From the NCBI GenBank assembly GCA_001789205.1, contig MFYT01000109.1:1-64000 (forward strand): DNA of 64,000 bases. Reading direction: 5' to 3'. The translations under genes and the position numbers were made by a program. Positions 1 through 16,226 of the stretch are shown piece by piece. The notes beneath the pieces are model-generated. The model was given only the letters and a program-made list of their open reading frames with translations, had not been told where the DNA came from and ran no database searches. Numbering within the stretch: position 1 is the first letter of the stretch; the number at the start of each line of letters is the position of its first letter. This DNA comes from Candidatus Raymondbacteria bacterium RIFOXYA2_FULL_49_16. Lineage in GTDB: Bacteria; Fibrobacterota; OXYB2-FULL-49-7; XYB2-FULL-49-35.

Positions 1-3000
1 GCCCTGGCTGCGTGAATTGCCCCAGATATCGATTGATGGTGCGTATGATCCATTTGCCCAATCAACCGCTTTATCAGCTCCGGCAGGACGAAGAAAGTTG
101 GTGTCCGTTATGGTGGTGCTCAGGAAGGTTGAGGCGGAAGAGTCGCAGATACTTTTGGTGTAGTAGGTGGCTGCCTGGCCCTGGAACATATGGGCAGTGG
201 GGGAGGTCTCGTAAACCGTGTTGTACACAGTATAGGGGCCAACCGCATATCCGGCAGTACCGTAAAAGACCGTGTCATTGCCGCTGGATATCAGGTTGTT
301 GGCAATGGTGATATTGGCCATGACACCGCTACCGCTCGCATCGTCGCTGATACTGATAAATTTATTGCTGCAATCGTATGCGGTATTGTTAACGACATAG
401 TAGAGAGAATCGCGGCTGCCTGCGTTATACCCATCGTTTTCACCAAAAACCATAGGCCGGTAACACTTATTGAAGATATTGTTGCGCACAAAAAGGCCCT
501 TGTTGCTGCCCTCATGGTATTTAACGTAAATAGCGCTATTGTTTGTACCTCCGGTAGTGCCCGACATGTCGAATATATTCCTTTCCACCCAGATGCTGTC
601 AAAATGGTTGGGCGCACCGGAATACGAGGGCTTTACACAGTAGATTATTTTATTCAATTGACCGCCGCCGTCGCCGGTAATCGCCAGCCGCAATCCGCGG
701 ACAGATGTATAACTTGGGACGGTGAAAAGGGCTGTAACGCCTGCCCCATTGGTAACAACTTTGGTAAGCAAAGGCATTTCCGATGGTTTCGCGGCCCAGC
801 GCTGCGGTTCAAAAATGAGATTGTTGGCATAAGTAGCATGGATATTGGACGCGCTGATACCCGCAGTACTGGCCCACGAATATGTCCCTGGTCCGATTTT
901 GACCGTGACCATACCGGAAAGGTCTGAAACCTTGCTGATGTGTGCAACAGTGGTATCTATGGTTTTGAAGGGATGCAGAGAATCATTACACTCGTTGCAC
1001 AAATTATCATACCCACTCGCTGAATCAACCCATATAGTGCCGGAAGTGTATGGTGTATTAGTACATGCGGTGATCTCGTCAGCGCCGATCTCCCAGCCAT
1101 TACCAAGCGGCCGGGTGGCACCCTCAATGTCCAAAGTGAACATGCTGCTGAGATTCGCACCGCGGTCACGGGCAATACTGGCTGCGCCAAGGCGCAAATC
1201 GCGCGTGGCCGCGGCAGTATCAACAAAGGCAATCTGCGCGTAAGTGATGTTGCGGTAATTTTTTGTCGGAGCCACTGAAAAGGACGTGTCGCTCACTATG
1301 TTGTTCGTGTCCGCGGCTGTGATAGCGCTGCCCGCATCGTCAATGACATCCGTGACATAGTTGCCCCAGATAATGTTGTTTACCACGGAAATATTATTAT
1401 TGCCTCCCTGAGCAAATCCAGTATCGCATTTTGTAATAGTATTGTTAAAGAAGCTGGTAGAACCACCCCAGGCCTGCCAACCACGTGCATACCCGTAGAT
1501 AAAATTGTTCGAAATTACAGCATTTGAACCGCCTGGATTGGTTATCGCTCCTTTAGCACCGCCGTCCCGGATAATGCAATATATGATAGTTAGATTGGTA
1601 CCATTGAGGTATATACCGTAATCGCCGCCTATATTGCGTATGTCCAACCAAAGGATATTCGTATATCCACTGCTAAGGTTCCATCCGGATCCGGCTCCGT
1701 TGACTACAACACCCGTATTTGCTTTTCCCGTATGCCGGTTTGCCGCGTTAGCCGTCACTGTTATGGTATGTGATGCGTCAGTAGTCCAGCCTGAGATATA
1801 CTGGGACGTGAATTCAGCCCCGTCCTTGTAAAACAGGGCAACTTCGCTCCAATTGTCCGTCACTATGTTCCGGTTCTGGTTCTCCCAGTTCGCAAAGGTT
1901 GAGTATTTGCGCAATATTGTATACGCCGCGCCCGCGTTAGTGGAATTGGCGTTCCGGACAAGAACCAGACGCGTCTCAGAGGTCACTGAATCAATAATGT
2001 ACCCTTTGCCGCAGGCAGCGATGTATATACTGTCGCCCTGGCCCCGGTTGTCGGTTGTCCACGCAGTACCTGATCCGATCACCACTTTTGAACCAGCTGT
2101 AGTAGAAATGGTTCCTGTGGTGTAATTCGCCCTGTTGCCGATTGATTCATACCGGTTGGGAACTGTGACATACACTTCCTTGTGCGACACGCTGGCCACA
2201 GAGCCGGTCTTCGGATACGTGGTGGAAACATCACCGGTTGACAAGCTCACGCGCATTGAATCATTGTGGCCAAGCGATGGAAAATCCGCCACAAGAATGT
2301 AGTTTGTCCCGGATGAAACAGTAAAGCCTGTGGAGAAAGAAATACGATTTGTTCCCCCTATGCTTACAACGCCCCCGCCGCCCACAGTTGTCTCTGTTAC
2401 ATCAACCACGCCGTCATTGTTCGCGTCAACATACAAAGAGCATCCCTGTACGTCAGATGACACAAGACCGTTGATACCTGAAAGCGCAAATGCAATGCTG
2501 GCTATCGAGGGAGTACCGCCAGAGGGCGTCAGTCTGAAGCGTAATATCCTAACATCAGCCTCCGCGCCGTTCTGTCCAAAAGCGTCGGAAACCTGGCCAG
2601 CATCATGGTCCGCAAGCGTCAATTGCGTGGGTGGGGAGGACGCCTGCTCGTCAAAACCAATGTCCGCCGTGCTGCCCGAACGGCTATCGCCATCAAAATC
2701 AAGAGAAGCTACATTTGCGTCACTCCCGGGACCTATGCCAGCGCCGTTGAGCAGCGAGCCTGCCCCAATATGCAAGTCTTCACTGCCCGATGTTGTAGAA
2801 GTAAATGATGCGTTCGCAATCGAAATGGTCTGGTTATTACTGCTGGTGCCTGCTGTCCCATCGTCTGACCCGTTGTAAACAAAATTTATTGTCGTATTAC
2901 TGTAGTCAACGCCGCTAAATACATAATCCGGTCCTGTGCCCGTGTTTGCCGCATAATTGTTCTTAACAAGCGGCAAATATGATGAACTGGTGCTATTGTT

Positions 3001-5235
3001 CACGGTAATACGTATTGCTCCTCCAGAAGACGTATAGCTTCCATATACAGTATTGTTATAAATCTTACTCTGCCTCGCTGCGGTTGTTTGATAGTTCCCA
3101 TCATAGTATAGGCCCCAGAGCAAAGTGCTGGAACCGCTGACTAAAATATTATCGTGAATGGAGCAAGCATAGTGGTCTGTGGTTGATACGTTCCCATTAT
3201 AAATTAGATTTCCATAGTTTCCGCCACTTTGCTGGTAGAGTAAATTATATGCGAACTCACAGTTGTTCCCACAACCGGTGCCTGCGGTAGTGGAAGTCCC
3301 TATGCAACTTCCGTATGACCAGTTAGAGGATGTTCGTATTATCTTCAATCCAATTACTTTTGTATAATTAGCGCCAATATCAATATTCCGCGCATAACCC
3401 CCGGAAAAACTGCTTAGCAGCGTGTAACCCCCTCCGTTTATCACGCCATTATGCCTCTGGTTCTGATTGCACTCCGTTGATGTATTTGTTGGCGTAAAAA
3501 TGGTAATATAATACGATGCGCTGGTGGTCCAGGTGGAACTCAGCGTATCCATTGAAGCGTCGTTTCCATCCGCATAACAGGAGATATATAGCTTAGTTTT
3601 CGCAGTGGTCAGGGCCATTGTATTCAAATGGCTGGAATTCGCAGAACCCGGAGCAGAACCGCTAATGGCAGCATTGAGAGAATTAAACGCTCGTTTGATG
3701 GAGTTCACCGTTGCGCCCGATATGCCCGAGGGCGTCCAGCCCTTTTGGTCGGTCACCACCCATTCGGACATCGTGTTCTTCTTCTTGATATACAGGGTGT
3801 AGTTCGTGTTGAATGTGATCATGTCCCCCACGCCAATATTGCCTGTCTGGGCAATGGAGAACGTGGCAGTGCCGCTGGTGACCGATATGGTCGGGCTGCC
3901 TGTCTTGAAATCCGACGCGCTCGTGCCAACTGAATAATACAGCGTACAGGGGTCTGCGGCAGCGGTCAGGGAATAGAGAAACTTATCAGCGCCGATGTCC
4001 CATGCCCCAACTGTTCTTGTTTCTCCATCAATGTCTGTATTGAATGGGTAATTTGCATCTGCGTGTAAATCTGCTCCAGCGGTTATTGCGTCAGTATCCG
4101 TTCCATACAGATGGAAGTCCTTGTTGGCCGAATCAACAAAAATGAGCGTTTTATTTGTTTTTGCGTTTGTGCCAGTAGCGGTCGCGTCTTTTGACAAATT
4201 ATTTGTCGAACCCGCTTTGGATGTTAAAGTATAATCTGTCGTATTGCCATACGAAATATTATTTGAATAATATGCGTCAGCATCTTGTTGTATGCCAGTG
4301 GCGCATCCATACACAGTGTTATTGTATACACAAGGAAAATAAGTTCCAAAAGCCTGGTCAAGTTTCATTCCATACGAACCGGAATAATCAAAACCATAAA
4401 TAATATTATTTATCACCATAACATCTGATGCTGTTCCGGTCCAGACTATGCCGTATCTTATTCCCGTGGCCCCTGATCCGCGAATAATATTTCCATTTAC
4501 AATCTGGCCCCTGCCAGAGTACGGGGCATTTGAAAAAATTCCATTGGAATTTACAGCGTCTATCTGCAGGCCTTCTATGCGCGTATAGCTTCGAACGGCC
4601 AACTGGCCGTTTACCATGTATTTTGTGGCCGACCACTTCCCGCTATGCCTTTGCGACGCATTAACTTCATTCACCGTGTCATATGGTGTGTATAAACGGA
4701 GATAATTGGATGACCCTCCCTGGATCCAGCTGAGAGTGGGGGCTGTGGCGTCGGGGCCTGTATCGTAATAGCAGGCGATATCCAGCTGATAGTTGCCGGC
4801 AATCAAATCCTGGGTGTTTAGATGCGTCGCATTGCTGACGCCGACAAAAGGGCCGCTGTCCCAATAGGGAAACGCCCCTCCGAGGCCGCTGAAAGCATGC
4901 GCGATCGAATTCACGGTTTGCCCGGTTACGTCTGGCGGCGTTGCTCCGGTCGCTGTAATTACCCTCCATTGGGTCGTGGAAATTTTTGAAGAAATATAAG
5001 CGATACTCGAAGCATTGTATGTTACCTGGTCCCCAACGCCCATGTTTGTAGCTGTTTGCGCAACTGAAAAAGTGGCTATTCCGCCGGATAGGGTAATTGT
5101 CGGAGAACCTGTTTTATGGTCCGTGGTGTTCTGGCCAACGCTGTAACAGATTTTGGTCTGAGAAAACCCCAGTGAATACAAAAAAAGAATGGTGCCAGTT
5201 ACAAGAACAAAGTTACTCATTGCGGTCTTTGACAT
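1..5235 (-). CDS. Giant secreted modular parallel beta-helix protein (3' end outside window)
   Basis: An open frame of 1745 codons runs from ATG at 5235 to the left edge with no stop, so the gene is partial. AGGGAGA at 5244-5250 is a good ribosome site. The N-terminus is a signal peptide (hydrophobic stretch at about residues 8-22, then FSQT). Asn-rich turns of the type NNIIYG, NNTVYG and VVNNIIWGN recur, as in right-handed parallel beta-helix (pectate-lyase-like) proteins. Choice-of-anchor-Q-like endings (W-D/E-I-G-A-D) occur near residues 413, 858 (variant DIGFDE) and 1382. A box YSVG..........KTGSP followed by GVGD occurs at about residues 31 and 433, so modules of ~400-520 residues are repeated. 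A Ca-loop-like DANNDGVVD lies near residue 930. It is probably a cell-surface or secreted polysaccharide-binding or adhesive protein; substrate and anchoring are unknown. No catalytic lyase residues could be identified. Confidence 0.88.
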   Translation of the reverse strand, partial: MSKTAMSNFVLVTGTILFLYSLGFSQTKICYSVGQNTTDHKTGSPTITLSGGIATFSVAQTATNMGVGDQVTYNASSIAYISSKISTTQWRVITATGATPPDVTGQTVNSIAHAFSGLGGAFPYWDSGPFVGVSNATHLNTQDLIAGNYQLDIACYYDTGPDATAPTLSWIQGGSSNYLRLYTPYDTVNEVNASQRHSGKWSATKYMVNGQLAVRSYTRIEGLQIDAVNSNGIFSNAPYSGRGQIVNGNIIRGSGATGIRYGIVWTGTASDVMVINNIIYGFDYSGSYGMKLDQAFGTYFPCVYNNTVYGCATGIQQDADAYYSNNISYGNTTDYTLTSKAGSTNNLSKDATATGTNAKTNKTLIFVDSANKDFHLYGTDTDAITAGADLHADANYPFNTDIDGETRTVGAWDIGADKFLYSLTAAADPCTLYYSVGTSASDFKTGSPTISVTSGTATFSIAQTGNIGVGDMITFNTNYTLYIKKKNTMSEWVVTDQKGWTPSGISGATVNSIKRAFNSLNAAISGSAPGSANSSHLNTMALTTAKTKLYISCYADGNDASMDTLSSTWTTSASYYITIFTPTNTSTECNQNQRHNGVINGGGYTLLSSFSGGYARNIDIGANYTKVIGLKIIRTSSNWSYGSCIGTSTTAGTGCGNNCEFAYNLLYQQSGGNYGNLIYNGNVSTTDHYACSIHDNILVSGSSTLLWGLYYDGNYQTTAARQSKIYNNTVYGSYTSSGGAIRITVNNSTSSSYLPLVKNNYAANTGTGPDYVFSGVDYSNTTINFVYNGSDDGTAGTSSNNQTISIANASFTSTTSGSEDLHIGAGSLLNGAGIGPGSDANVASLDFDGDSRSGSTADIGFDEQASSPPTQLTLADHDAGQVSDAFGQNGAEADVRILRFRLTPSGGTPSIASIAFALSGINGLVSSDVQGCSLYVDANNDGVVDVTETTVGGGGVVSIGGTNRISFSTGFTVSSGTNYILVADFPSLGHNDSMRVSLSTGDVSTTYPKTGSVASVSHKEVYVTVPNRYESIGNRANYTTGTISTTAGSKVVIGSGTAWTTDNRGQGDSIYIAACGKGYIIDSVTSETRLVLVRNANSTNAGAAYTILRKYSTFANWENQNRNIVTDNWSEVALFYKDGAEFTSQYISGWTTDASHTITVTANAANRHTGKANTGVVVNGAGSGWNLSSGYTNILWLDIRNIGGDYGIYLNGTNLTIIYCIIRDGGAKGAITNPGGSNAVISNNFIYGYARGWQAWGGSTSFFNNTITKCDTGFAQGGNNNISVVNNIIWGNYVTDVIDDAGSAITAADTNNIVSDTSFSVAPTKNYRNITYAQIAFVDTAAATRDLRLGAASIARDRGANLSSMFTLDIEGATRPLGNGWEIGADEITACTNTPYTSGTIWVDSASGYDNLCNECNDSLHPFKTIDTTVAHISKVSDLSGMVTVKIGPGTYSWASTAGISASNIHATYANNLIFEPQRWAAKPSEMPLLTKVVTNGAGVTALFTVPSYTSVRGLRLAITGDGGGQLNKIIYCVKPSYSGAPNHFDSIWVERNIFDMSGTTGGTNNSAIYVKYHEGSNKGLFVRNNIFNKCYRPMVFGENDGYNAGSRDSLYYVVNNTAYDCSNKFISISDDASGSGVMANITIANNLISSGNDTVFYGTAGYAVGPYTVYNTVYETSPTAHMFQGQAATYYTKSICDSSASTFLSTTITDTNFLRPAGADKAVDWANGSYAPSIDIWGNSRSQG

Positions 5236-5622: not shown

Positions 5623-8600
5623 ATGAATAAAATTTTAACAATTTCATTCATTGCACTGTTTTCTGTGTTGGGATTCACCCAGACCACGGATACCATCCCT
5701 CAAATCTGGGTTCAACGTTTGGTTACGCCAGACTCCATTTTTTATGAAGGCGCTCCTTCCGGATCTCATTCAACCGTAAATCTCCGCGCATGGGCCAGCA
5801 ATGACTCAATCACCCAGGGCCTTCCTCTCGATGTTATCCTATTAACCGACAACAGTGGTTCCATGGGCACTCGTAATCCCGGCACTCGTGACTGGATACC
5901 CCCAGTCTCACGCATCCAGGGGGCGTATAACGCATGCGTCAATTTTGTTGACAGCACACTGAACATTCATGATAGCGTGGCCCATATGCGTTTCTGCGCA
6001 AAGGTCGACACTCCCCAACCTTACACTAACAACTTTGCGCTTGCAAAAGCAAAAATGGACACAAATATCAACGGCAAACAAACCGTTGGCGGTATCGTAT
6101 ACGAGGGTACCGCTTCCTATACAGGCATCCTTGAAGCAGTACGCTATATGGGGAAAAACGCCAAACCGGGTCGATTGAATGTGTTAATTGCGCTCACCGA
6201 TGGTGAAGATAACGCATCAGGTAGCTACGGGTGGTACTGGACCTTGAACAGAGACCGCGGTTATATTCTACCGAATCTTGGCACAACCAAGACAAGGGCC
6301 GTTGATTCTGTTGTAAAAATCATCGATTCACTGACTGCTTCCGGAATTAATTTTAAAATATTCACCATCAACCTGATGACTTACAGCGACACTACTTATC
6401 TAAAAAGAATCGCACGGCAAGGACATGGTACATGGTCTTATTCAAATTCAGGAGCAGACCTCGACGCCATTTTCTATGAAATTGGCCAAAGCATTTCCGA
6501 CATTGCCGCTGTCAGCCTGATGCCCGGCACGCCAATGATCATTGACGTTCTTGGCCCCGATATCCATTATGTTCCCGGCTCATTTGTGGCCACTACAGGT
6601 ATGGGTTACCAGGTACCCACCTTTCAAGTCGACACAGTGAGTGGGTTTACCAGGCTAAAATTTTTAATCGACACAGTCCGTGTGGGCAAATTCATTGACC
6701 TTAAATACGAGATTACCGCGGCATTGTATACGCCGGACGTAGCCACTGCAAAACAGATGCGGACCAACAACGCCTCAGGCAACAACCCCACCTACTATTC
6801 GCTGGTCCAATATGTTGATGCAAACGATTCAATTGTCACCAGGCCTGTACCCCGGAACTATGTATATGTTAAAAGCGAGATCGGCGGAGTATACCTCTCC
6901 ACGACCGGCGCAGGTGTTCCGGTTACCCCCATGCCATCAACCATTGCGCAAACCTATACCTTTGCCACGCCAGCAACCTATCCCAATACCTTGCTTTATG
7001 CCATAAGAACCGATATTGCCACAGATACCATCGCAAATGTCCTGGTTCCCGCAACATGGTATTTTTATCCCAACCCAACCTGGACAGCCACCACACTCAA
7101 TGGTGTCATTACTAACAACAGAACAGTCGGTGTTACGGTCGCCTACGATAACCATGATACCGCATCTCTCCGTATACGCTATATGTTCAACAACCAGACC
7201 TATGGCGACACCGTACTTTTCTCTTTTACCGACATCTCAGCGCCAGAACAAGTTATCTCAACCCAGATAGAACGCGATACCGCAAGCCATACACAAATAA
7301 CCTCCAGATTTGTTGTCAGGGGCGATACTGCCTATCTGCGGACTTTTTCGTACACAGTATTTGCCCGCGGCCTCACCAACCGGAGTTCCAACATGCCCAT
7401 TAGCGCAACCTGGAGCAAATCCGGCTTTGCTAACTTCGGGCTGCCAACAATAACCGGTGTTGCAACACAAAAAACATTCAGCCTCACTGATATTGCCCAT
7501 GTGAATTTTACGCAGAACGATTCAGGGACAATTCGCATCGACTACAATGGATATACTTCCCAATTCCAGCTTGTTATATACGATACCACTGATTATGATA
7601 CAACAGACAGGGTCGTTTTATACAACAATACATACAGTTTCAATAAAACCACTATCGAAACCAACTATCCTGTGTACACGTCAAACGATGTCTATACCGT
7701 AAACGCCGGTGACTCAATCACCTTCTGGCCCATGTTTTTCGACAACAACAGGAGCATAAACAAATACCTGAGCACAGGGACTGTTTCCTGGACCCTTAAT
7801 GGCAGTTTTGCGGCCAACAGAGCTTATTTCGGCATCAGAGGTTTTACGCCAGGTTCGCAAGACCTCATTATTGCCTCATATACCAATGAATGGGGCGTTC
7901 TCCTGCGCGACACGGTCCGTGTTGGCTGGAACAATGAACCGCACCGCTATATGTCAATTGAATCCCAACCCGGCGTGCCCTACAGCAATGTAACCAATTT
8001 TGTCACCGATACCCTGGTCATTTTAAACACACAGACAGACACGGTCGGCGGTCTCTATGCCGTGGTGCGCGACGGATTAGGATATTGCGTGTCCGACTGC
8101 AACAATGATTACGAAAGCTGGACCGATGCGGGACCTGGCGCAAGTTATATCACTGTTCCGGGAGTAATCACCAGCACTGGCTGGATCTACAAGACCAGCA
8201 ACCCAGCGGCTGCAACAACCGCCATGGTCATTGCCATTGGCCAAGCCAGCTATGGCCTGGGCAACCAGCGCGACACGGTCTTTGTCCGTATCGCGGCCTA
8301 TTCGTACGACAAACTTGACATATGCGCTGCCGCGCCAATCCAGGGTTTCAGTATTGGCGACACCATTCCACGCAATACAGTCATAAGTCTTGCTGCATGC
8401 GAACTTACCGGTAGTTTTCAGGCAAGGGCGCGCCATGATGCCACTCTCTGGGACATTGTGACTGTTTCCTGGACTGTGAAAAACGGAACTGCCCTGAGCA
8501 ATACCTTTCCCCTGTCAGCTCCCAGTATAACCCTTGATCCTGTTGCAGGGACCGCGCGCGACACCCTCTTTGCCACCTATGCTGGCGCAACCACGTTGCG

Positions 8601-11600
8601 CGACACCATGCTCTTTTCCGCGGCGCCAGCCTATTTCATTGGCATCCAGCTCGATTCCACAAAAACAATCACCTCAAATCTCCAGGAAATAACCGTTAGA
8701 GGAAATTTGACCCAGTTGCGCAATACCATGTTTTGGCTCTATGCCATGGGTAATTATAATTGCACAGCAGCCCCTCGAAGCCCGGCTGCCGCAACATGGA
8801 ACACGACTCTCTCGCAGACATGGTTCTCTAGCATGATCAATCAGACCAACGTTTGCTCAGTTTTTGTCAATTTTAACAACATGCCAAACACGCAGGGCAG
8901 CCACAGCGCCAGCGGTCAAATCAGCATCTCCTACACCACTACTCTCGGCAATGTGACTGACAACATCCTGTTCAATATTATCGACACCACTGACTATGAC
9001 ACGCTCGAATACCTCATTGTCGATACCTCTGCCAGCGCCATTGTCACCTTCTCGGAATTTATGGGAAAAAATATCCCCCTGCTCCAATATTCAGCCCCAG
9101 CCGGCTCAACCATTCCCCTGTATGCCACGCTCTACGACCTTAACAACGCCGCAGTCGGTTTGTTCCCCAAACGCATTGGCGCTGACCAGGCCATCTGGCA
9201 AATCCGCCACAGCGCAACCGGTCAGTCAGAGCAGGTAAACGCCACAACATACAATCTTACCAGCACAGGCGCTGGCACAAAAGACACCATTGTGGTTTCG
9301 TATCCAGCCCCCACTGCAACGTTTACCCAGCCAATCAAACCCACTGGCCGCATGACACAGACCATTATTGTTTCCTGGACTGCGGGCACTGGCAGGTTCC
9401 TGCGCATAGTGGACGCGCCAACAACAGGCGCCAGCGACATCACCAGCATATCAATGCAGGCTGGTACCGATACCGTGCATGTCTACGCCATTGTGGTGGA
9501 CCAGTTCAACAACCGCATTGCCAATGGCCCTGTGCAATGGAGTTCCTCCAACGCCACATACATCACCGTGCCAACAAGCACAACCTACGATGGTAAAATT
9601 GTGAAGGCCAGCCAACCCTCAGCACCCATAACAGTCAGTGTGGTTGCGACCCTTCCGGCAAACACCAACCTGGGAAACAACTACTATTCAGGCTCTGTCG
9701 CTCTCTACGATACAGTCACAATCACTATTGGTAATTTTACTTTCGATAGTTTGCGGATCGTTACCTACAACAATCCATACGATTTCACAACCACTGAGAA
9801 CAAAACCATTAGCGGCGATGGCGCAATTGTAAGTTTCTTTGACCTCTTGCTCATGCGTACCTGCGCCCAAAGCGCCACTTTTAAGGCTCAAATCCACAGT
9901 ACCAACCCTGCCATGGGCGTCAATGGCTGGGTTTCCGACCAGGTAGTGACATGGGTCAACAAAACAGATACGTCGCGTAACGCTGTATCGTACACAGTTT
10001 CACCGGTGACCCAGGTCAACCTCGATACCATCAGGGCTATTTCAGGTTTGCTCCATGCTGACATCCATTTTAAGACAACCGCGCCAAACATTGTCAGTGT
10101 CCAGCTTCTGCCCCACCCCGCAAACGGCCGTATCGTGGTTTCCGGCGATTCAGCGTCAATTCGCGACACGTCCATTACCTTTACCGTGACGGGTACCGAC
10201 GAGTGCGGAAACAGCGCGGGCGTCAATGCCGCATGGAATTCGCTCGGATTTACCCGGATCGTTTGGGCAAACAGCTTTGCAACACAGCTGGGGCTCACTG
10301 CGCAATCAACCAAAATAATTAATTTTCTCGACATGCCCAGCGACACCACTCCCCAAAGCGACAGCGGTTACATCGCCATTACCTATACCGACCCTGTATC
10401 AAACATAACCTATACCGACTCAATCAAACTGATAATCCGCGATAATACCGATTACGATACTGTCGATAAAGTGGTCATTGTTCCTGATTCCATGTACCGT
10501 ACCGCGAACAATAAAGACGACTTGTATGCGCAATATTCCAATGTCAACTACACGCAGTTCTCCGGCGATTCCATCAGGTTCTCGGCCCTGCTCTTTGACA
10601 TCAACGCCAACCCAAAATTCCTGGCCAACTACGAAGTAGGGTACAACAATGCGCACGCCTTCTGGTATCTCAACGGCAAGCCATGGGATAATCCCGCCAC
10701 CACGGTTGATTCGGTCTTTGTCTATGGACGTACCGTGCCCGGCGCGGACACCATCGTGGTGCTCTACGGCAATACGCCAGCCACTGCAATCATCCGCGAT
10801 ACTGTTATCATCACCTGGACCGCGGGTCACCAACGCGTGCTCTACATTGAAAGCGCGCCAGGAACCGCGGGTTCCAATACACCCCAACTGGCAAGCACCA
10901 TGGTCTTTACCACGGTCGATAACGGTCGTTCAGACACGGTTTATGCGGTAATACGTGACGAATTCAACAACTTTGTCACCAACGATCCGCTTGAACGGTG
11001 GACCTATGCCTCGGGTGAAGACGACTATTTCGTCTTTCTCAGGTATCCCACAGGCCAGGTCACCAATCTGGGCGTGGTCACCAAGCTCGATTCAAACCCC
11101 CCAGCTACACGAAGCTACCATCTTATTGCAAACATCGTGGCCGGAACGCCGGTCAAGGGCGTCACTCTTTCCAAGACCATTGCCGACACCATTGCCATTG
11201 ATCTTGCCAACTACTCCTTTGTCGAATTGGGCATCTTTGCCGCCTCAAACAACATTATCAGCACCACGGGCGTGGCCTATCCAGTGGGTGCCAGGATCCC
11301 GCAAACCACGGTGCTCACCATGACTTCTTTCGAAGACACAATACGCGTGGAAACGAAAAAGAGGCGTAATGATCTTCCCGCTTCTGACGCCAATGCCTGG
11401 CTAACCCAAAGTGTGTCCTGGAGGCTCTCTGTGCCCGGCGTTGTTTCCAGCGCCCTTTTCCCGGCAACCGTGGCCTCGCGCGCAACCCTTGCGGCCATTG
11501 GCGCTGTCACACTCGACACCCTCGTAGGCACCTCCACAGGCGATGGCCTGAGCGCACGCATTCTATTCACCATTGAAGAGGCCTGGATAGATAGTTTCAT

Positions 11601-14055
11601 AATCATCTACAATCCCGCCGCGGTCATCGCGGGCAGCGGTTTCCCCTTTACCATCATTGCCCTTGATAAAAACGGCGACACCATCACCGATCCATCGCGT
11701 CTTCCCACTGGATTCAACCTCTCGTCGCTCAATTTAATCGTCCATTACAACAACCTCGATACCACTGTGCTGCACGGCGGCACCACCTTTATCTCCGACC
11801 CCTTTACCAATGGAGTGTCCAATAATACGGTGGTTACCTATAGTGCCGGCGCCAATCAGGTGATCATTGAAATACCCTATCCTTACAACGGCGGCATTGC
11901 GATATTCATTGACACGTTCAATATCACCACACGGCCCGGCGAGCCGGATTCCTTGGTGGTCATTAACTATGGCGACTCCACTCCGGTCACCATTGATACG
12001 CTCTCGTCGTTCAACGATGACAATTCCACGCGTACCTTTATCGTACGGCTCTTTGACGAATGGGGCAACCTGATTACCGACAAAACCGTCTATGCGGGCG
12101 TGGACTGGAGTACCCAAGGCGATGGCATCTCATTCGATAAAATCCAGGCAGCCGCTGATCTTATGCAGTACAATGCCTCGGACGACACAGGCATGGGCGG
12201 CATGGGGACCATCAACGCTTTCTATGTACAAAACGACGGCGATTCCCTGAAATATTCTTTCACTATTGTCGTCATTCCGCTGGTGCGCATTCTCGACATC
12301 TCCACGCACGAATGGGTCGGTGACACCACGACCGCGCTGGGCACCGCGGAAATCGAGTCGGTCATTGTTAACGTGTTGCGCCGCGACCTCGATTATCTGA
12401 AACTGCTCATCACCGAAGACTCGCTCGAATATCTCTACGTTAAAAAGCTCAGGGAATTCGGTTACAACGACAAGCGGGATGGATACCTTGACTATCTAGA
12501 CATCACATTATCGCGTCCCTTCACTTTGAAGGAGAAATATGTCTCCGCTATCAAGTTCAAGGCTGAAGTAGACGGATTGCAGGATTCCGTGATATGGAAA
12601 ACCGAGGACTCCATCACCATCAGCGAAACTGAGACCATTGCACGTAAAATACGGCTCCAGGCGCTCGACATGCCCGGCAGCGTTGAACATACGAAATACC
12701 GGCTCTGGCTGCTCCCCAATTCCGTCAACACCAAAGGCGCGTCGCCGCTCGAGACCGGTTTGCTGCCTATTGTCGCCTTTAACAACGACGCTGTCTACGA
12801 GGACGGCAATCTTGCCGGCACCCGCTTCCCCATGCTCATCGGCAGCGGCGCCCCTCTATACGCCACGCCCGACAGTCTCATCACCGATTCAGCTCCGCCC
12901 GTTATCTGGAATTTCAAGCTCCAGAACCACACCTGCGACCTCGATAACCCGGAAAACACAGCCACGATATTCTTCTCAGAACCTGTACAAACCAGTAGTA
13001 TCCCCTCCATTGCTTCGTCCGTTATCGCCTTTGCCTTGGTGAATGGCGACAGCACCGACAGTCTTTTCATGAGAACGCTGATTAAAAATGGATATAGGAC
13101 CACGGTCAACGATGTGGACCATAGCATTGTTTCCTGGGACTACCGCGGCGAGACCGTCAAAACCTTTGCGTATCAGGTCGTCATTGATACGTCCGCAAAC
13201 AGGTTCTTCAAGGCGAACCTTACCAAAATCCGCTTCTCAATAAATCCCTCCGCTGGCCAGGTACTCGATATGTGGGGCAACAAAGCCATGGCTTCCAACA
13301 ATCTGGCGGTCACTCTGGTCAACGATGCGGCCTACAACGCGAAAATCTGCAATCTGACCGGAAACACGGTCGTGGACCGCATGACTGCCATGTCACTAAG
13401 CTGGACCTCGGTCAAAGGCGATGATGGCAGGTATGTGGATGTGCCGGCATTCCCTTTCTTCGGATTTACGGTGAATCTCGACCTCATTACCAACAGCGGT
13501 AACATGAACAATGTGGTCGGCCAATTTACCTTGGGCAACCGGACATACATCATCTGCGATTTCGATACACTCGAGGCCTTTGTCCAGACCGATGTCTCAA
13601 TCTACGATCTGTTCGGTAACACGGTGGCCACCCCAAAAACAAACAAGCTGCTGCACGGGGATTTCACCATACAAGATATCCGGATCGGTACGGGCATCGA
13701 CTCCATACAGCCCAAACTCCCGACAATGTCGCTTCAGGAAATCGAGAGATACTACCGGATATACCCGAGCGACAATCGGGGCGATCCTGACACATTGCGT
13801 CCCATATACCCGGAAACATTCACTCTTGGCTACGAGTTCCTCAAGGAAACAAGCGGACCCCGTACGATAACATCCTTTAGGCTGCCGGTCTGGAACTGTC
13901 TCAATGCAAAAGGCCGTCTTGTGGCGCCCGGCGGTTATATCGCGGTACAATCGATCAGGATAGCCAAGGAACTGACTGAGGCGGTAAAGAAGTTCATTGT
14001 AACGAGCGGTGAAAAGCGTGGGACACGGACCTTTGACAATCTTCCGGTCCCCTGA
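5623..14055 (+). CDS. Giant secreted VWA-domain surface protein with long tandem repeats (2810 aa)
   Basis: The start ATG follows AAGGAG and opens a signal peptide (MNKILTISFIALFSVLGFTQ). Residues ~68-300 form a von Willebrand A domain with MIDAS residues D76-x-S78-x-S80 (DNSGS), a Thr in GTASYTG and Asp in LTDGEDN. The bulk is Thr/Asp/Asn-rich beta-sandwich-like sequence. A unit of about 480 residues is repeated three times; the mark D-[TN]-TDYDT falls at residues 654, 1121 and 1607, and each copy later carries a W[TN].G/N...R.. .IE/D..P stretch and VV.D.FNN. Near residues 2280-2300 an EF-hand-like DKRDGYLDYLDI is seen. No T9SS domain, LPXTG or transmembrane anchor is visible at the C-terminus (ends DNLPVP). 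The likely role is metal-dependent adhesion or matrix formation at the surface; the export route is unknown. The gene is monocistronic, convergent with the AraC-type gene three bases away. Confidence 0.9.
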   Translation: MNKILTISFIALFSVLGFTQTTDTIPQIWVQRLVTPDSIFYEGAPSGSHSTVNLRAWASNDSITQGLPLDVILLTDNSGSMGTRNPGTRDWIPPVSRIQGAYNACVNFVDSTLNIHDSVAHMRFCAKVDTPQPYTNNFALAKAKMDTNINGKQTVGGIVYEGTASYTGILEAVRYMGKNAKPGRLNVLIALTDGEDNASGSYGWYWTLNRDRGYILPNLGTTKTRAVDSVVKIIDSLTASGINFKIFTINLMTYSDTTYLKRIARQGHGTWSYSNSGADLDAIFYEIGQSISDIAAVSLMPGTPMIIDVLGPDIHYVPGSFVATTGMGYQVPTFQVDTVSGFTRLKFLIDTVRVGKFIDLKYEITAALYTPDVATAKQMRTNNASGNNPTYYSLVQYVDANDSIVTRPVPRNYVYVKSEIGGVYLSTTGAGVPVTPMPSTIAQTYTFATPATYPNTLLYAIRTDIATDTIANVLVPATWYFYPNPTWTATTLNGVITNNRTVGVTVAYDNHDTASLRIRYMFNNQTYGDTVLFSFTDISAPEQVISTQIERDTASHTQITSRFVVRGDTAYLRTFSYTVFARGLTNRSSNMPISATWSKSGFANFGLPTITGVATQKTFSLTDIAHVNFTQNDSGTIRIDYNGYTSQFQLVIYDTTDYDTTDRVVLYNNTYSFNKTTIETNYPVYTSNDVYTVNAGDSITFWPMFFDNNRSINKYLSTGTVSWTLNGSFAANRAYFGIRGFTPGSQDLIIASYTNEWGVLLRDTVRVGWNNEPHRYMSIESQPGVPYSNVTNFVTDTLVILNTQTDTVGGLYAVVRDGLGYCVSDCNNDYESWTDAGPGASYITVPGVITSTGWIYKTSNPAAATTAMVIAIGQASYGLGNQRDTVFVRIAAYSYDKLDICAAAPIQGFSIGDTIPRNTVISLAACELTGSFQARARHDATLWDIVTVSWTVKNGTALSNTFPLSAPSITLDPVAGTARDTLFATYAGATTLRDTMLFSAAPAYFIGIQLDSTKTITSNLQEITVRGNLTQLRNTMFWLYAMGNYNCTAAPRSPAAATWNTTLSQTWFSSMINQTNVCSVFVNFNNMPNTQGSHSASGQISISYTTTLGNVTDNILFNIIDTTDYDTLEYLIVDTSASAIVTFSEFMGKNIPLLQYSAPAGSTIPLYATLYDLNNAAVGLFPKRIGADQAIWQIRHSATGQSEQVNATTYNLTSTGAGTKDTIVVSYPAPTATFTQPIKPTGRMTQTIIVSWTAGTGRFLRIVDAPTTGASDITSISMQAGTDTVHVYAIVVDQFNNRIANGPVQWSSSNATYITVPTSTTYDGKIVKASQPSAPITVSVVATLPANTNLGNNYYSGSVALYDTVTITIGNFTFDSLRIVTYNNPYDFTTTENKTISGDGAIVSFFDLLLMRTCAQSATFKAQIHSTNPAMGVNGWVSDQVVTWVNKTDTSRNAVSYTVSPVTQVNLDTIRAISGLLHADIHFKTTAPNIVSVQLLPHPANGRIVVSGDSASIRDTSITFTVTGTDECGNSAGVNAAWNSLGFTRIVWANSFATQLGLTAQSTKIINFLDMPSDTTPQSDSGYIAITYTDPVSNITYTDSIKLIIRDNTDYDTVDKVVIVPDSMYRTANNKDDLYAQYSNVNYTQFSGDSIRFSALLFDINANPKFLANYEVGYNNAHAFWYLNGKPWDNPATTVDSVFVYGRTVPGADTIVVLYGNTPATAIIRDTVIITWTAGHQRVLYIESAPGTAGSNTPQLASTMVFTTVDNGRSDTVYAVIRDEFNNFVTNDPLERWTYASGEDDYFVFLRYPTGQVTNLGVVTKLDSNPPATRSYHLIANIVAGTPVKGVTLSKTIADTIAIDLANYSFVELGIFAASNNIISTTGVAYPVGARIPQTTVLTMTSFEDTIRVETKKRRNDLPASDANAWLTQSVSWRLSVPGVVSSALFPATVASRATLAAIGAVTLDTLVGTSTGDGLSARILFTIEEAWIDSFIIIYNPAAVIAGSGFPFTIIALDKNGDTITDPSRLPTGFNLSSLNLIVHYNNLDTTVLHGGTTFISDPFTNGVSNNTVVTYSAGANQVIIEIPYPYNGGIAIFIDTFNITTRPGEPDSLVVINYGDSTPVTIDTLSSFNDDNSTRTFIVRLFDEWGNLITDKTVYAGVDWSTQGDGISFDKIQAAADLMQYNASDDTGMGGMGTINAFYVQNDGDSLKYSFTIVVIPLVRILDISTHEWVGDTTTALGTAEIESVIVNVLRRDLDYLKLLITEDSLEYLYVKKLREFGYNDKRDGYLDYLDITLSRPFTLKEKYVSAIKFKAEVDGLQDSVIWKTEDSITISETETIARKIRLQALDMPGSVEHTKYRLWLLPNSVNTKGASPLETGLLPIVAFNNDAVYEDGNLAGTRFPMLIGSGAPLYATPDSLITDSAPPVIWNFKLQNHTCDLDNPENTATIFFSEPVQTSSIPSIASSVIAFALVNGDSTDSLFMRTLIKNGYRTTVNDVDHSIVSWDYRGETVKTFAYQVVIDTSANRFFKANLTKIRFSINPSAGQVLDMWGNKAMASNNLAVTLVNDAAYNAKICNLTGNTVVDRMTAMSLSWTSVKGDDGRYVDVPAFPFFGFTVNLDLITNSGNMNNVVGQFTLGNRTYIICDFDTLEAFVQTDVSIYDLFGNTVATPKTNKLLHGDFTIQDIRIGTGIDSIQPKLPTMSLQEIERYYRIYPSDNRGDPDTLRPIYPETFTLGYEFLKETSGPRTITSFRLPVWNCLNAKGRLVAPGGYIAVQSIRIAKELTEAVKKFIVTSGEKRGTRTFDNLPVP

Positions 14056-14565: not shown

Positions 14566-15186
14566 TCATATCGATGAAATAAAGGCGTTGTCATATTTCT
14601 GGGTCCCAATATCAGTGACAGGTCCATGGCCAGGAAGCACAACCAGGCGTTCATCAAGCGCGCACAGCCGTTGTAACGAACCGCAAAGCAGGTTAAAAGA
14701 ACCTCCGGGAAGGTCGTACCTGCCCACGCTTCCCTGAAACAGGACATCACCGGTAACAACCAAATCGTCCGCGACAAGGGAAATGGAACAGTGTGAATGG
14801 CCGGGCGTATGCATCACTTTCATTGTTTCGTTTCCAAGGGAAAGAGTATCGCCTTCGTCTATTTTTTTATAGTCTGTGATCAGTTCATTGGGCTCAAACC
14901 CCAGCAAAAAACATGAATCGCGATAAAACTCCCGCAATTCTTCAGCGGCCGCGTGCATGCGCACCGGAACGTTGAATTGGCGTGCAAAGAGGGCGGCGGC
15001 ATGCACATGGTCCGCATGGGAGTGCGTAGCAACGATTGACCGGACTTCCAGACCTTCTGTTTCTATGAATTGCGTCATGCCCCGGCAAACCTGAACAGGA
15101 TCAACAATGCAGGCGGTTTTTTCCTTGGTATAGAGAACATACGAATTTGTCTCTATAGGGCCAAGCTCGAACATCCTGTATCTCAT
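14566..15186 (-). CDS. MBL-fold metallo-hydrolase (glyoxalase II-like)
   Basis: The metal-binding set of the metallo-beta-lactamase fold is complete: THSHADH, the His of HTPGHSHCS, the Asp of VTGDVLF and the His of LPGHGPVT. The size (~206 residues) and the N-terminal pattern ETNSYVL fit the short glyoxalase II-like group, which hydrolyse thioesters such as S-lactoylglutathione; the true substrate is not known. I start it at MRYRMFELG (15186) because the longer reading from 15231 would overlap the divergent acetyltransferase gene. TATTTT sits six bases before this ATG and no Shine-Dalgarno is present, which hints at a leaderless mRNA, although the -35 match is poor. It is followed within 7 bases by the AraC-type gene. 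Confidence 0.85.
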   Translation of the reverse strand: MRYRMFELGPIETNSYVLYTKEKTACIVDPVQVCRGMTQFIETEGLEVRSIVATHSHADHVHAAALFARQFNVPVRMHAAAEELREFYRDSCFLLGFEPNELITDYKKIDEGDTLSLGNETMKVMHTPGHSHCSISLVADDLVVTGDVLFQGSVGRYDLPGGSFNLLCGSLQRLCALDERLVVLPGHGPVTDIGTQKYDNAFISSI

Positions 15187-15215
15187 ATCATTAAAATAGT
15201 TATCTTTAGTGCGAC

Positions 15216-16226
15216 ATGGAAGCCTATACAACGCATAATCTTGCGACTGAATTAAAAAAAATCAGCCTCCAGGGAAATGTAGCGGGTATCCATTCACGGC
15301 TTTCCGCCATTGGCGAAATTGATCCCTCCCCGGTTTCCGAAAACGAGGCGCGCAAGGGCATGCGTCCCTTTGTGAAAACAGTGATCAATGCCTTTGTCGA
15401 GGCCCTTGGCCCCGAAGGCACTCTGTTTGTTCCTTCCCATTCGAACAACACCGAACTTGACGCCTGGTGGTATTACCACGGGCACAACAAACAAATGCCG
15501 CCGAACAACGGCTTTTATCATCCGGAGATAAGCCCGTCAAACGTAGGCGCTTTTACGCAGGGTGTTATTGCGCACAATCAGGGCATCCGGAGCCTCCATC
15601 CAACCCATTCAACCGCTGCCATTGGCAAAGAAGCTCGGTATCTGACAAACGGACATGGACCCGATTCTCAGCCCGTAGGCATCCAGAACGCCTTTTCCAA
15701 GGCCATTGGTCTAGATGGGACCATCATATTCATTGGCGCTGTGTTCAACTCAAACACCATGTTTCACGCCTATGAGACCCTCTTTTTGCCGGCATTAGCG
15801 CCCTATTTCCCGGCAGTCGCCATGGTTGAGCAGCAAGGAGAAAGAAGACTCTTTGCGCAAACATGGCACCCCTCATTACACCGCGAATTTTATGATAACA
15901 AACGCGAGGAATCAAAATCCATACGAGCATTGTTCGAATCGGGGCTTATGCACGAATCTTCCCTTGGCAATGCGCCCCTTTTCTATTATAACGCCAAGGA
16001 AATGGCCCGCTATTTTCTGGAACGCATGATCAGGGAACCCGACATCCTTTTCTGTACCAATGGCGCCCGTTGCGGAAGAAGAAAAAGCTGCCTCAACATC
16101 ATTTTCAGTATGAAAAAGCTTTTTGCGAACAAGGATGGTTCGTGGGACACAGAGAAAATCCGGTCCCAGGTCCCGCAAGAAGTACTGCGACTTCTTGAGC
16201 CGGGCATGCAAAAAACCGTCTTTTAG
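15216..16226 (+). CDS. AAC(3)-family (antibiotic N-acetyltransferase fold) protein
   Basis: The 336-residue sequence matches the AAC(3)/Antibiotic_NAT family: early GNVAGIHSRLSAIG, the GPEGTLFVPSHS strand, SPSNVGAFTQ, and the RSLHPTHSTAAIG box, which holds the family's active-site His. Members transfer acetyl from acetyl-CoA to the 3-amino group of 2-deoxystreptamine aminoglycosides, but many chromosomal members act on other amines. A C-terminal region (~ residues 270-300) with CTNGARCGRRKSC contains three Cys, which is unusual for the family and could bind a metal. The gene stands alone, divergent from the MBL-fold gene; the next gene's ECF promoter begins directly after its stop. Whether it confers aminoglycoside resistance cannot be told from sequence. 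Confidence 0.82.
   Translation: MEAYTTHNLATELKKISLQGNVAGIHSRLSAIGEIDPSPVSENEARKGMRPFVKTVINAFVEALGPEGTLFVPSHSNNTELDAWWYYHGHNKQMPPNNGFYHPEISPSNVGAFTQGVIAHNQGIRSLHPTHSTAAIGKEARYLTNGHGPDSQPVGIQNAFSKAIGLDGTIIFIGAVFNSNTMFHAYETLFLPALAPYFPAVAMVEQQGERRLFAQTWHPSLHREFYDNKREESKSIRALFESGLMHESSLGNAPLFYYNAKEMARYFLERMIREPDILFCTNGARCGRRKSCLNIIFSMKKLFANKDGSWDTEKIRSQVPQEVLRLLEPGMQKTVF

What the first reader, a model, noticed from the sequence alone, without database searches (positions are those of the whole stretch)
1..5235. Giant beta-helix protein with repeated choice-of-anchor-Q modules, cut by the window edge
The frame has 1745 codons without a stop and is thus easy to overlook. The ends of its modules (W-D/E-I-G-A-D) fall at residues ~413, 858 and 1382, and a YSVG...KTGSP...GVGD box starts at ~31 and ~433. 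This implies a repeated ~400-520-residue module, each with its own helix and cap. The complete protein may be well over 2000 residues. A DANNDGVVD loop hints at a calcium site. Its ligand and anchoring are unknown.
Basis: partly seen in the sequence, partly recalled or inferred. Interest (0 to 1): 0.55.

Follow-up and report, generated by a model that had tools for sequence, protein, structure and literature searches.

The report
Secreted giant built from phage-tail modules
A very long, probably secreted bacterial protein is a chain of beta-helix modules whose closest relatives found outside its own genome lie in phage tail genes, and its genome holds a family of such genes that appear to swap pieces with each other.

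Summary
In detail: 1,745 stop-free codons on the minus strand, starting at 5235 with a signal-peptide-like start. The cut at window base 1 is the contig's own end, so the C-terminus is not recoverable. The real anatomy is A-A-X-B-D. A and B are capped beta-helix modules, X has an EF-hand-like loop, D is a further helix-like module. Both A modules are predicted to be pectate-lyase/tailspike-type helices.

The modules are of phage-tail type. Cap B matches the N-terminal part of tail-fibre families (best E 9.6e-12). A-module tandems lie in IMG/VR phage tail regions, in one just after baseplate genes. Window A1 shares 67% of cap residues with a phage A module. In trees A1 groups with phage modules; bacterial monophyly is rejected (AU p 0.0008; 0.022 without the longest branches). 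Cap A occurs 17 times in this genome and once, weakly, in 166 others of its phylum.

Paralogues include C25 peptidases and FlgD-type C-termini; some genes share recombination-like tracts. Function, probably glycan binding at the surface, is inferred. Direction of transfer is unproven.

The parts
1..5235 (-). open reading frame of the giant protein, 1,745 codons, 3' end cut by the contig end
5158..5235 (-). residues 1-26, signal-peptide-like N-terminus (MSKTAMSNFVLVTGTILFLYSLGFSQ)
   Evidence: read directly from the sequence; no signal-peptide program was run
3982..5157 (-). module A1 (residues 27-418): cap A + right-handed beta-helix + closing DIDGxTR...WDIGAD motif; groups with phage modules
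4870..5154 (-). cap A of A1 (residues 28-122), 64 of 95 residues identical to the cap in phage locus L064
2641..3981 (-). module A2 (residues 419-865): second capped beta-helix
3664..3945 (-). cap A of A2 (about residues 431-524)
2164..2640 (-). domain X (residues 866-1024), found in 10 of the 15 sequences of the giant-gene set (11 copies) and in none of the 8 viral proteins searched
2392..2427 (-). EF-hand-like 12-residue loop DANNDGVVDVTE (residues 937-948) in X
1066..2163 (-). module B (residues 1025-1390): cap B + helix + WEIGAD tail; contains the weak choice-of-anchor-Q match
1825..2154 (-). cap B (residues 1028-1137), related to N-terminal domains of phage tail fibres
1..1065 (-). module D (residues 1391-1745 and beyond): helix-like module (partial match to the A profile at 1501-1744) with no cap A or cap B match, cut by the contig end
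980..1182 (.). recombination-like tract with paralogue C106: exact runs 980-1026, 1028-1132 and 1134-1182
3298..3367 (.). 70-base exact run shared with paralogue C53
248..312 (.). 65-base exact run shared with paralogue C53
1..39 (.). 39-base exact run with paralogue C106 at the contig end

Best explanation
It is a secreted giant protein made of tandem capped right-handed beta-helix modules of phage-tail type. In phages such modules sit in tail genes, and the phage proteins seen start without a signal peptide (by eye). Here the same unit (first strand, inserted cap, helix, closing DIDGxTR-WDIGAD tail) is joined behind a signal peptide, next to an X domain with an EF-hand-like loop and, in paralogues, to C25 peptidase domains and FlgD_ig-type C-terminal domains. 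Most likely the protein is exported by Sec and then to the cell surface, or released, perhaps by the T9SS of which the genome shows markers. The helix faces probably bind extracellular or surface polysaccharide, as tailspike and polysaccharide-lyase helices do. Module exchange between paralogous genes renews the binding repertoire. Shown: module anatomy, beta-helix fold of A1-A2 (prediction), homology to phage tail proteins, phylogenetic mixing of A1 with phage modules, family expansion in this genome, recombination-like tracts, SprA_N and Por-tail domains in the genome. Inferred: export of this protein and its route, calcium binding, glycan binding, and acquisition from phages rather than the reverse.
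For: Fold: AlphaFold2 of residues 27-865, mean pLDDT 72.4, pTM 0.53, about 92 over model residues 1-90, which hold the first cap. VIA-align: Pel9A Z 18.4 (3.1 A, 236 residues) for A1; for A2 a pectin methylesterase Z 17.6 (3.8 A, 249), Geobacillus virus E2 ORF18 Z 16.6 (3.4 A, 237) and Kp32gp38 Z 15.8 (6.3 A, 259). The top row (Z 18.7) and a cyanophage tailspike (Z 15.9) have rmsd of 18.2 and 16.2 A because they span both modules. Phage tail: cap B of the window matches 14 PHROG families, best E 9.6e-12; 7 are named tail proteins and 7 have no known function; 12 of 14 matches lie in the first 84 profile positions. All 10 cap B copies scanned match phrog_1980 'tail fiber protein'. In the PDB its profile finds phage distal tail protein gp20 (E 4e-4, residues 2-71) and F2-pyocin side fibre (E 0.0086, residues 4-87). 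A and B modules are full-length homologues (hhalign probability 99.9, E 2.8e-37). A modules occur in 10 IMG/VR records, 8 after setting aside two look-alike pairs; 7 of these 8 proteins carry 2-5 cap A copies. In L113 the order is tape measure, baseplate hub, two wedge subunits, then the A-module ORF. The L064 record carries portal, terminase and collagen-like tail-fibre matches. Trees: A1 and one paralogue group with three phage modules (100/99 and 100/98); one clade of bacterial modules rejected. Distribution: cap A 17 copies here, 1 weak hit in 166 other genomes of the phylum. Surface context: SprA_N, 150 Por-tail matches among 150 of 456 candidates scored, C25 domains in three giants, and in C57 a Pfam 'pectate lyase-like adhesive domain' over its cut-off.
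Against: No binding, secretion or expression data. The gene's own C-terminus is missing. Of six paralogues with complete ends, three (C57, C69, C90) have a FlgD_ig domain just over its cut-off, but every sorting-domain match there (Por_Secre_tail, CHU_C) is below cut-off, and none of the 150 listed Por-tail places is one of these ends; three (C96, C23, C75) stop at the helix tail (C75 was not scanned with Pfam). Direction of transfer rests on a midpoint root, and bacteria outside the phylum were not effectively sampled (both genome-contig scans found nothing). The phages collection had no tblastn match to the B, A1 or L064 queries. Cap A on its own has no PHROG or PDB match, and the cap A to cap B comparison alone is weak (probability 2.8); the link rests on the full-module comparison. 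Terminase_6N was not found in the L064 record, though PHROG terminase families match there. AU p rises to 0.022 when long branches are left out. Recombination tracts could in part be assembly chimeras, and seven of 11 tested comparisons show none.
Confidence: 0.6

Rival explanations
1. An ordinary large surface adhesin made of common bacterial beta-helix repeats; phages took modules from bacteria like this one for their tails.
For: T9SS markers are present.
Against: The caps are nearly absent from the other 166 phylum genomes (1 for cap A, 4 for cap B), yet cap B matches several tail-fibre families. Phage A modules are more diverse, surround the bacterial ones in the midpoint-rooted tree, and modules at like positions group across phages.
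Confidence: 0.25
2. A secreted polysaccharide-degrading enzyme: each helix is a lyase or esterase active on plant or microbial glycans.
For: The best structural matches are alginate and pectate lyases and pectin methylesterases. An N-x-x-Q-x-H-x-G motif is nearly invariant in A modules, with RHxG in A1, A2 and B of the window.
Against: The only Pfam family reported for the window protein at E up to 1 is DDE_Tnp_IS240 at 0.061, below its cut-off. A shared fold shows no activity, and no catalytic residues were mapped. The motif lies before the long run of coils and may be structural.
Confidence: 0.15
3. A decaying prophage or phage remnant.
For: Phage-tail homology of the caps.
Against: Signal-peptide-like start and intact 1,745-codon frame; the ten window ORFs scanned with Pfam give bacterial families such as gyrase B, a sigma factor, an efflux protein and an ABC transporter, and no phage family; paralogues with intact long frames and peptidase domains.
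Confidence: 0.03

Closest known systems
Phage tail fibres and tailspikes (PHROG tail-fibre families phrog_1980, phrog_1591, phrog_28473; F2-pyocin side fibre 25ve; distal tail protein gp20 23gd)
   Same: N-terminal cap B domain; right-handed beta-helix; A-module tandems in tail gene regions of IMG/VR phages
   Different: Here behind a signal-peptide-like start in a bacterial chromosome, several caps per chain, joined to X and, in paralogues, to C25 peptidase or FlgD_ig domains; no phage family among ten window ORFs scanned
Choice-of-anchor Q domain (NF041518)
   Same: The closing motif region of module B matches weakly (E 2.7e-4)
   Different: Below the curated cut-off (21.1 against 25 bits); only one stretch, in B, is reported
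Polysaccharide lyases PL6 / pectate lyases / pectin methylesterases
   Same: Parallel beta-helix fold
   Different: 6-15% identity in the structural alignments quoted; extra inserted cap; no such family hit
T9SS cargo proteins (TIGR04183, CHU_C; C25 gingipain family)
   Same: Paralogues C57, C69, C90 end in FlgD_ig domains with sub-threshold sorting-domain matches; C23, C75, C65 carry Peptidase_C25
   Different: The window protein's end is missing, no sorting-domain match on a paralogue reaches its cut-off, and no peptidase domain is in the part seen

Membership tests
Right-handed parallel beta-helix proteins | Predicted structure of single modules forms a parallel beta-helix like solved members | tested here: met
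   for A1 and A2 (VIA Z about 15-18). Not established for B and D by structure: the X+B model is unusable (pLDDT 33.5)
Phage tail fibre / tailspike family | Sequence homology to tail-fibre N-terminal domains | tested here: met
   Cap B against PHROGs E 9.6e-12, 10 of 10 copies scanned; PDB profile hits. Cap A alone: no hit
Phage tail fibre / tailspike family | Encoded in a tail gene cluster as a virion part | tested here: not met
   Ten window ORFs scanned give bacterial families and no phage family; the protein starts with a signal-peptide-like stretch. The left flank is missing. Met for the phage relatives L064 and L113
Choice-of-anchor Q (NF041518) | Score over the curated cut-off of 25 bits | tested here: not met
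   21.1 bits
T9SS cargo | C-terminal sorting domain on this protein | not testable with these tools
   3' end lost at the contig end
T9SS cargo | Genome shows T9SS markers | tested here: met
   SprA_N E 7.2e-23; 150 Por-tail matches among 150 of 456 candidates scored. Other T9SS parts were not searched
Polysaccharide lyase / esterase | Enzyme family profile match | tested here: not met
   No such family at E up to 1
Polysaccharide lyase / esterase | Catalytic residues in place | not tested
   No residue-level superposition was made

The most novel reading that the evidence does not exclude
A bacterium has taken over whole phage-tail modules (strand, cap, helix and tail) at least twice, put them behind signal peptides, and keeps a genome-wide, recombining repertoire of some 35 cap A and cap B modules in giant secreted proteins. 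This would be a glycan-recognition system in which bacterium and phage draw on one shared module pool, for adhesion, self-recognition, or masking or decoying the receptors that phages use.
Probability: 0.35. Interest if true: 0.75.

Novelty: new variant of a known kind. Interest (0 to 1): 0.58.

Why it matters
Exchange of binding modules is documented for phage tailspikes (listing and abstract start of PMC10408124) and for contractile injection systems (passages of PMC12923769). A large secreted bacterial protein family built from complete phage-tail modules, with peptidase and FlgD_ig domains attached and recombination among its genes, would show that tail recognition modules also feed the bacterial surface proteome. 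It gives a testable system: the same module in phage and in bacterium can be expressed and compared on one glycan panel. It may also explain why many of these genes lie at contig ends and carry almost no family annotation.

Tried and rejected
Whole-protein Pfam and NCBIfam scans gave almost nothing; the PHROG scan of the whole protein gave one weak hit, whereas cap B scanned alone gave 14 families. Both genome-contig scans found no relative, so bacteria of other phyla remain unsampled. tblastn of the B module, the A1 module and the L064 protein against phages, and of the A1 module against plasmids, found nothing. A tail-sheath search of seven viral records was empty. Terminase_6N was found in three of seven, two over the cut-off. 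PHROG scans of eight other ORFs beside the A-module genes gave one weak tail hit. A cap B scan of viral contigs found nothing, and single-protein scans returned only the query's own record. The scan with A8 gave known records again. Cap B's PDB search to E 1 also listed six other chains at 0.088-0.56, five of them antibody or nanobody chains, which I take as chance. Base composition: A1 has the lowest GC3 of the five modules (0.454 against 0.521-0.552) and phage genes are lower still (0.149-0.305, five genes); I count this as weak. Recombination tests, run on 11 hand-picked comparisons, were significant for four (C106, C53 twice, C69n) and not for seven. A first, stricter calcium-loop pattern matched 1 of 11 X domains; the broader EF-like pattern, written after seeing them, matched 11 of 11, with 0.055 expected in shuffles. 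The X+B structure model was unusable.

Papers: nine searches. 'choice-of-anchor Q' is in no held paper. None of the listings showed this module family or such a bacterial giant protein; I saw listings and abstract starts, plus passages of PMC12923769. T9SS in the Fibrobacteres-Bacteroidetes-Chlorobi group: abstract start of PMC11205867. The phylum name Fibrobacterota is my inference from relatives and T9SS; no call named it.

Rows dropped: L066 and L067 (look-alikes of L065 and L068 by their ORFs) were not in the trees; three B-type rows were removed from the 47 extracted (44 used), and five more long viral rows in the second tree (39 used); modules not covering cap and helix start (such as C90 and the second module of L113) were not extracted for the trees. 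C75 and C83 were not scanned with Pfam.

Full report
OBSERVATION. The frame at window 1-5235 is real: minus strand, ATG at 5235, 1,745 codons without a stop, open at the 3' end. A random sequence of the same composition would do this with a chance of about 1e-38. The window is contig C109:1-64000 of a 5.43-Mb genome in 112 contigs, so the left edge is the contig's own end. The first 39 bases are identical to paralogue C106, so the assembly probably broke at a repeat and the C-terminus cannot be recovered here. The start reads like a signal peptide (MSKTAMSNFVLVTGTILFLYSLGFSQ; by eye, no program). Ten other ORFs of the window, scanned with Pfam, give bacterial families (gyrase B, a RecF/SMC-type ATPase, a sigma factor, an AraC-type regulator, an efflux protein, an ABC transporter and others) and no phage family.

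ANATOMY. Self-comparison with 14 paralogous sequences and profile searches give: A1 27-418, A2 419-865, X 866-1024, B 1025-1390, D 1391 onward. Each A and B module begins with a short YSVG or YxSIG strand, continues with an 80-100-residue cap, then the helix, and closes with D-[IF]-[DE]-G-x-x-R (three of three, at 401, 846 and 1369) and WxIGAD or IGFDE. A and B modules are homologous along their whole length, caps included (hhalign probability 99.9, E 2.8e-37); the caps compared alone are not convincing (probability 2.8). An earlier, stricter pattern fitted 1 of 11.

FOLD. AlphaFold2 of residues 27-865 with 10 viral rows gave mean pLDDT 72.4 and pTM 0.53; model residues 1-90, which hold the first cap, average about 92, and the second helix is much poorer. 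Foldseek and VIA-align put both modules with parallel beta-helices: Pel9A Z 18.4 (3.1 A over 236 residues) for A1, pectin methylesterase Z 17.6 (3.8 A over 249), Geobacillus virus E2 ORF18 Z 16.6 (3.4 A over 237) and Kp32gp38 Z 15.8 (6.3 A over 259) for A2. Foldseek's own E-values are modest (best 3.7e-4, PL6 alginate lyase). Among viral predictions the first named rows are a tailspike and 'right handed beta helix' phage proteins, with low TM-scores. Many VIA alignments start at model residues 1-5 or 403-405, before the caps, which suggests that the cap is an insertion between the first strand and the helix; this is an inference from ranges. The X+B model from a single sequence was useless (pLDDT 33.5).

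PHAGE-TAIL RELATIONSHIP. Cap B of the window alone matches 14 PHROG families, the best at E 9.6e-12; 7 are named tail proteins (5 of them tail fibres) and 7 have no known function; 12 of 14 matches lie in the first 84 profile positions. All 10 cap B copies scanned match phrog_24607, phrog_12714, phrog_1980 and phrog_1591. Its profile also finds, in the PDB, phage distal tail protein gp20 (E 4e-4) and the F2-pyocin side fibre (E 0.0086), both at the chain's start. Cap A has no PHROG or PDB match, but whole A modules occur in IMG/VR phages: nine loci from one scan and L113 from another, ten records, eight after setting aside two look-alike pairs. Of these eight proteins seven carry 2-5 cap A copies and one, cut by its contig end, carries one. 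In L113 the A-module ORF is the next ORF of 100 or more codons after tape measure, baseplate hub and two baseplate wedge genes, where tail-fibre genes often lie (recalled), and it aligns colinearly with window residues 28-577 (34% over 591 columns). The L064 record has PHROG terminase, portal, head-protease and collagen-like tail-fibre matches, though Pfam Terminase_6N did not find it (3 of 7 records). Its 817-residue A-A protein aligns with A1 at 43% over the module: 64 of 95 cap residues and 110 of 284 of the rest identical. Window A1 against A2 gives only 45 of 94 and 100 of 276.

PHYLOGENY AND DISTRIBUTION. In a tree of 16 bacterial and 28 viral A modules, A1 and paralogue C89_905 group with L064 (two modules) and L113 at 100/99, apart from the other 14 bacterial modules; holding the bacterial modules together is rejected (AU p 0.0008). 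Without five long viral rows the grouping stays (100/98) and p is 0.022. Viral modules are more diverse, and modules at like positions in several phages group together, so the tandem is old in phages. Within the phylum, cap A has 17 matches in this genome and one weak one (E 1.6e-4) in the other 166 genomes; cap B has 18 matches here, one of them weak, and one in each of four others (E 5.9e-16 to 8.3e-4). Phage-to-bacterium transfer is the simpler reading, not a proven one: the root is a midpoint, and other phyla were not sampled.

THE FAMILY. The whole-protein search found 47 matches in the own genome on 15 contigs, the window's included, many at contig ends. Three members carry Peptidase_C25 (C23, C75, C65), C57 a sub-threshold C13-like match and a Pectate_lyase_5 'adhesive domain' over its cut-off, C96 CHB_HEX_C_1 and Fn3_assoc repeats. 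C57, C69 and C90 end in FlgD_ig domains just over cut-off; the Por_Secre_tail and CHU_C matches there are below cut-off, and none of the 150 listed TIGR04183 places is one of these ends. C96, C23 and C75 stop at the helix tail. The genome has SprA_N and 150 Por-tail matches among 150 of 456 candidates scored. DNA identity between paralogues is patchy: in a stretch of 25 same-residue codons (1352-1378) codons are 100% identical to C106 against 48% overall (p 0.0002), with exact runs of 105, 49 and 47 bases; two C53 comparisons (p 0.0002 and 0.0032) and C69n (p 0.011) behave alike; seven of the 11 hand-picked comparisons are not significant. This looks like gene conversion or module exchange, though assembly error cannot be excluded.

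MECHANISM. I read the protein as an exported chain of tail-type beta-helices, most probably a polysaccharide-binding surface or released protein, with the repertoire renewed by exchange among paralogues. Homology, predicted fold, family expansion and tracts are shown; export and its route, calcium binding, glycan binding and the direction of transfer are inferred. Enzymatic activity is the main functional rival; bacterial origin of the modules is the main evolutionary rival.

NOVELTY. Transfer of binding domains into the tail fibres of contractile injection systems is in print (passages of PMC12923769), as is tailspike modularity (listing, PMC10408124). My nine paper searches showed no description of this module family or of such bacterial giants. 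I rate it a new variant of a known kind. In checking I lowered the T9SS wording, because no sorting-domain match on a giant reaches its cut-off; the route was already inferred, so the odds stay.

Noticed in passing
window 5623-14055 (+): Divergent neighbour of 2,810 codons, also with a signal-peptide-like start and a VWA-like 'LLTDNSGSMG' motif seen by eye; Pfam gives only a sub-threshold Big_1 match. About 390 A+T-rich bases lie between the two genes.
   Followed up: partly
window 15216-16226 (+) and 14566-15231 (-): An aminoglycoside 3-N-acetyltransferase family protein (Antibiotic_NAT, E 2.7e-35) beside a metallo-beta-lactamase-fold protein; family labels only.
   Followed up: no
L046 (contig C69) about 1072-1174: One A module is split over two frames (profile columns 13-367 in one, 422-443 in the next): a frameshift in the gene or in the assembly.
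   Followed up: partly
L045, L047, L050 (contigs C65, C73, C81), contig ends: Three different giant genes end their contigs inside a cap B module: C73 and C81 are 92% identical over 196 bases, C65 and C81 91% over 167. Their GC is 0.38-0.42; the other giants have 0.46-0.53 except C57 at 0.41.
   Followed up: partly
L042 residues 951-1335, contig C75:17871-19043, L045 residues 22-385: C25 (gingipain-family) peptidase domains inside or at the start of module-bearing giants.
   Followed up: partly
L051 end and L046 start (contigs C83, C69): 67 identical bases at the two contig ends, probably neighbouring contigs of one gene.
   Followed up: no
L061 6040-8628, L062 5531-6433, L063 5575-6477: Viral ORFs whose match to the B module covers the cap only; in L061 it lies at the ORF's start.
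   Followed up: partly
G056:C58:60125-60454 (L101): Best cap B relative outside this genome in the phylum (E 5.9e-16), in a 1,241-codon frame.
   Followed up: no
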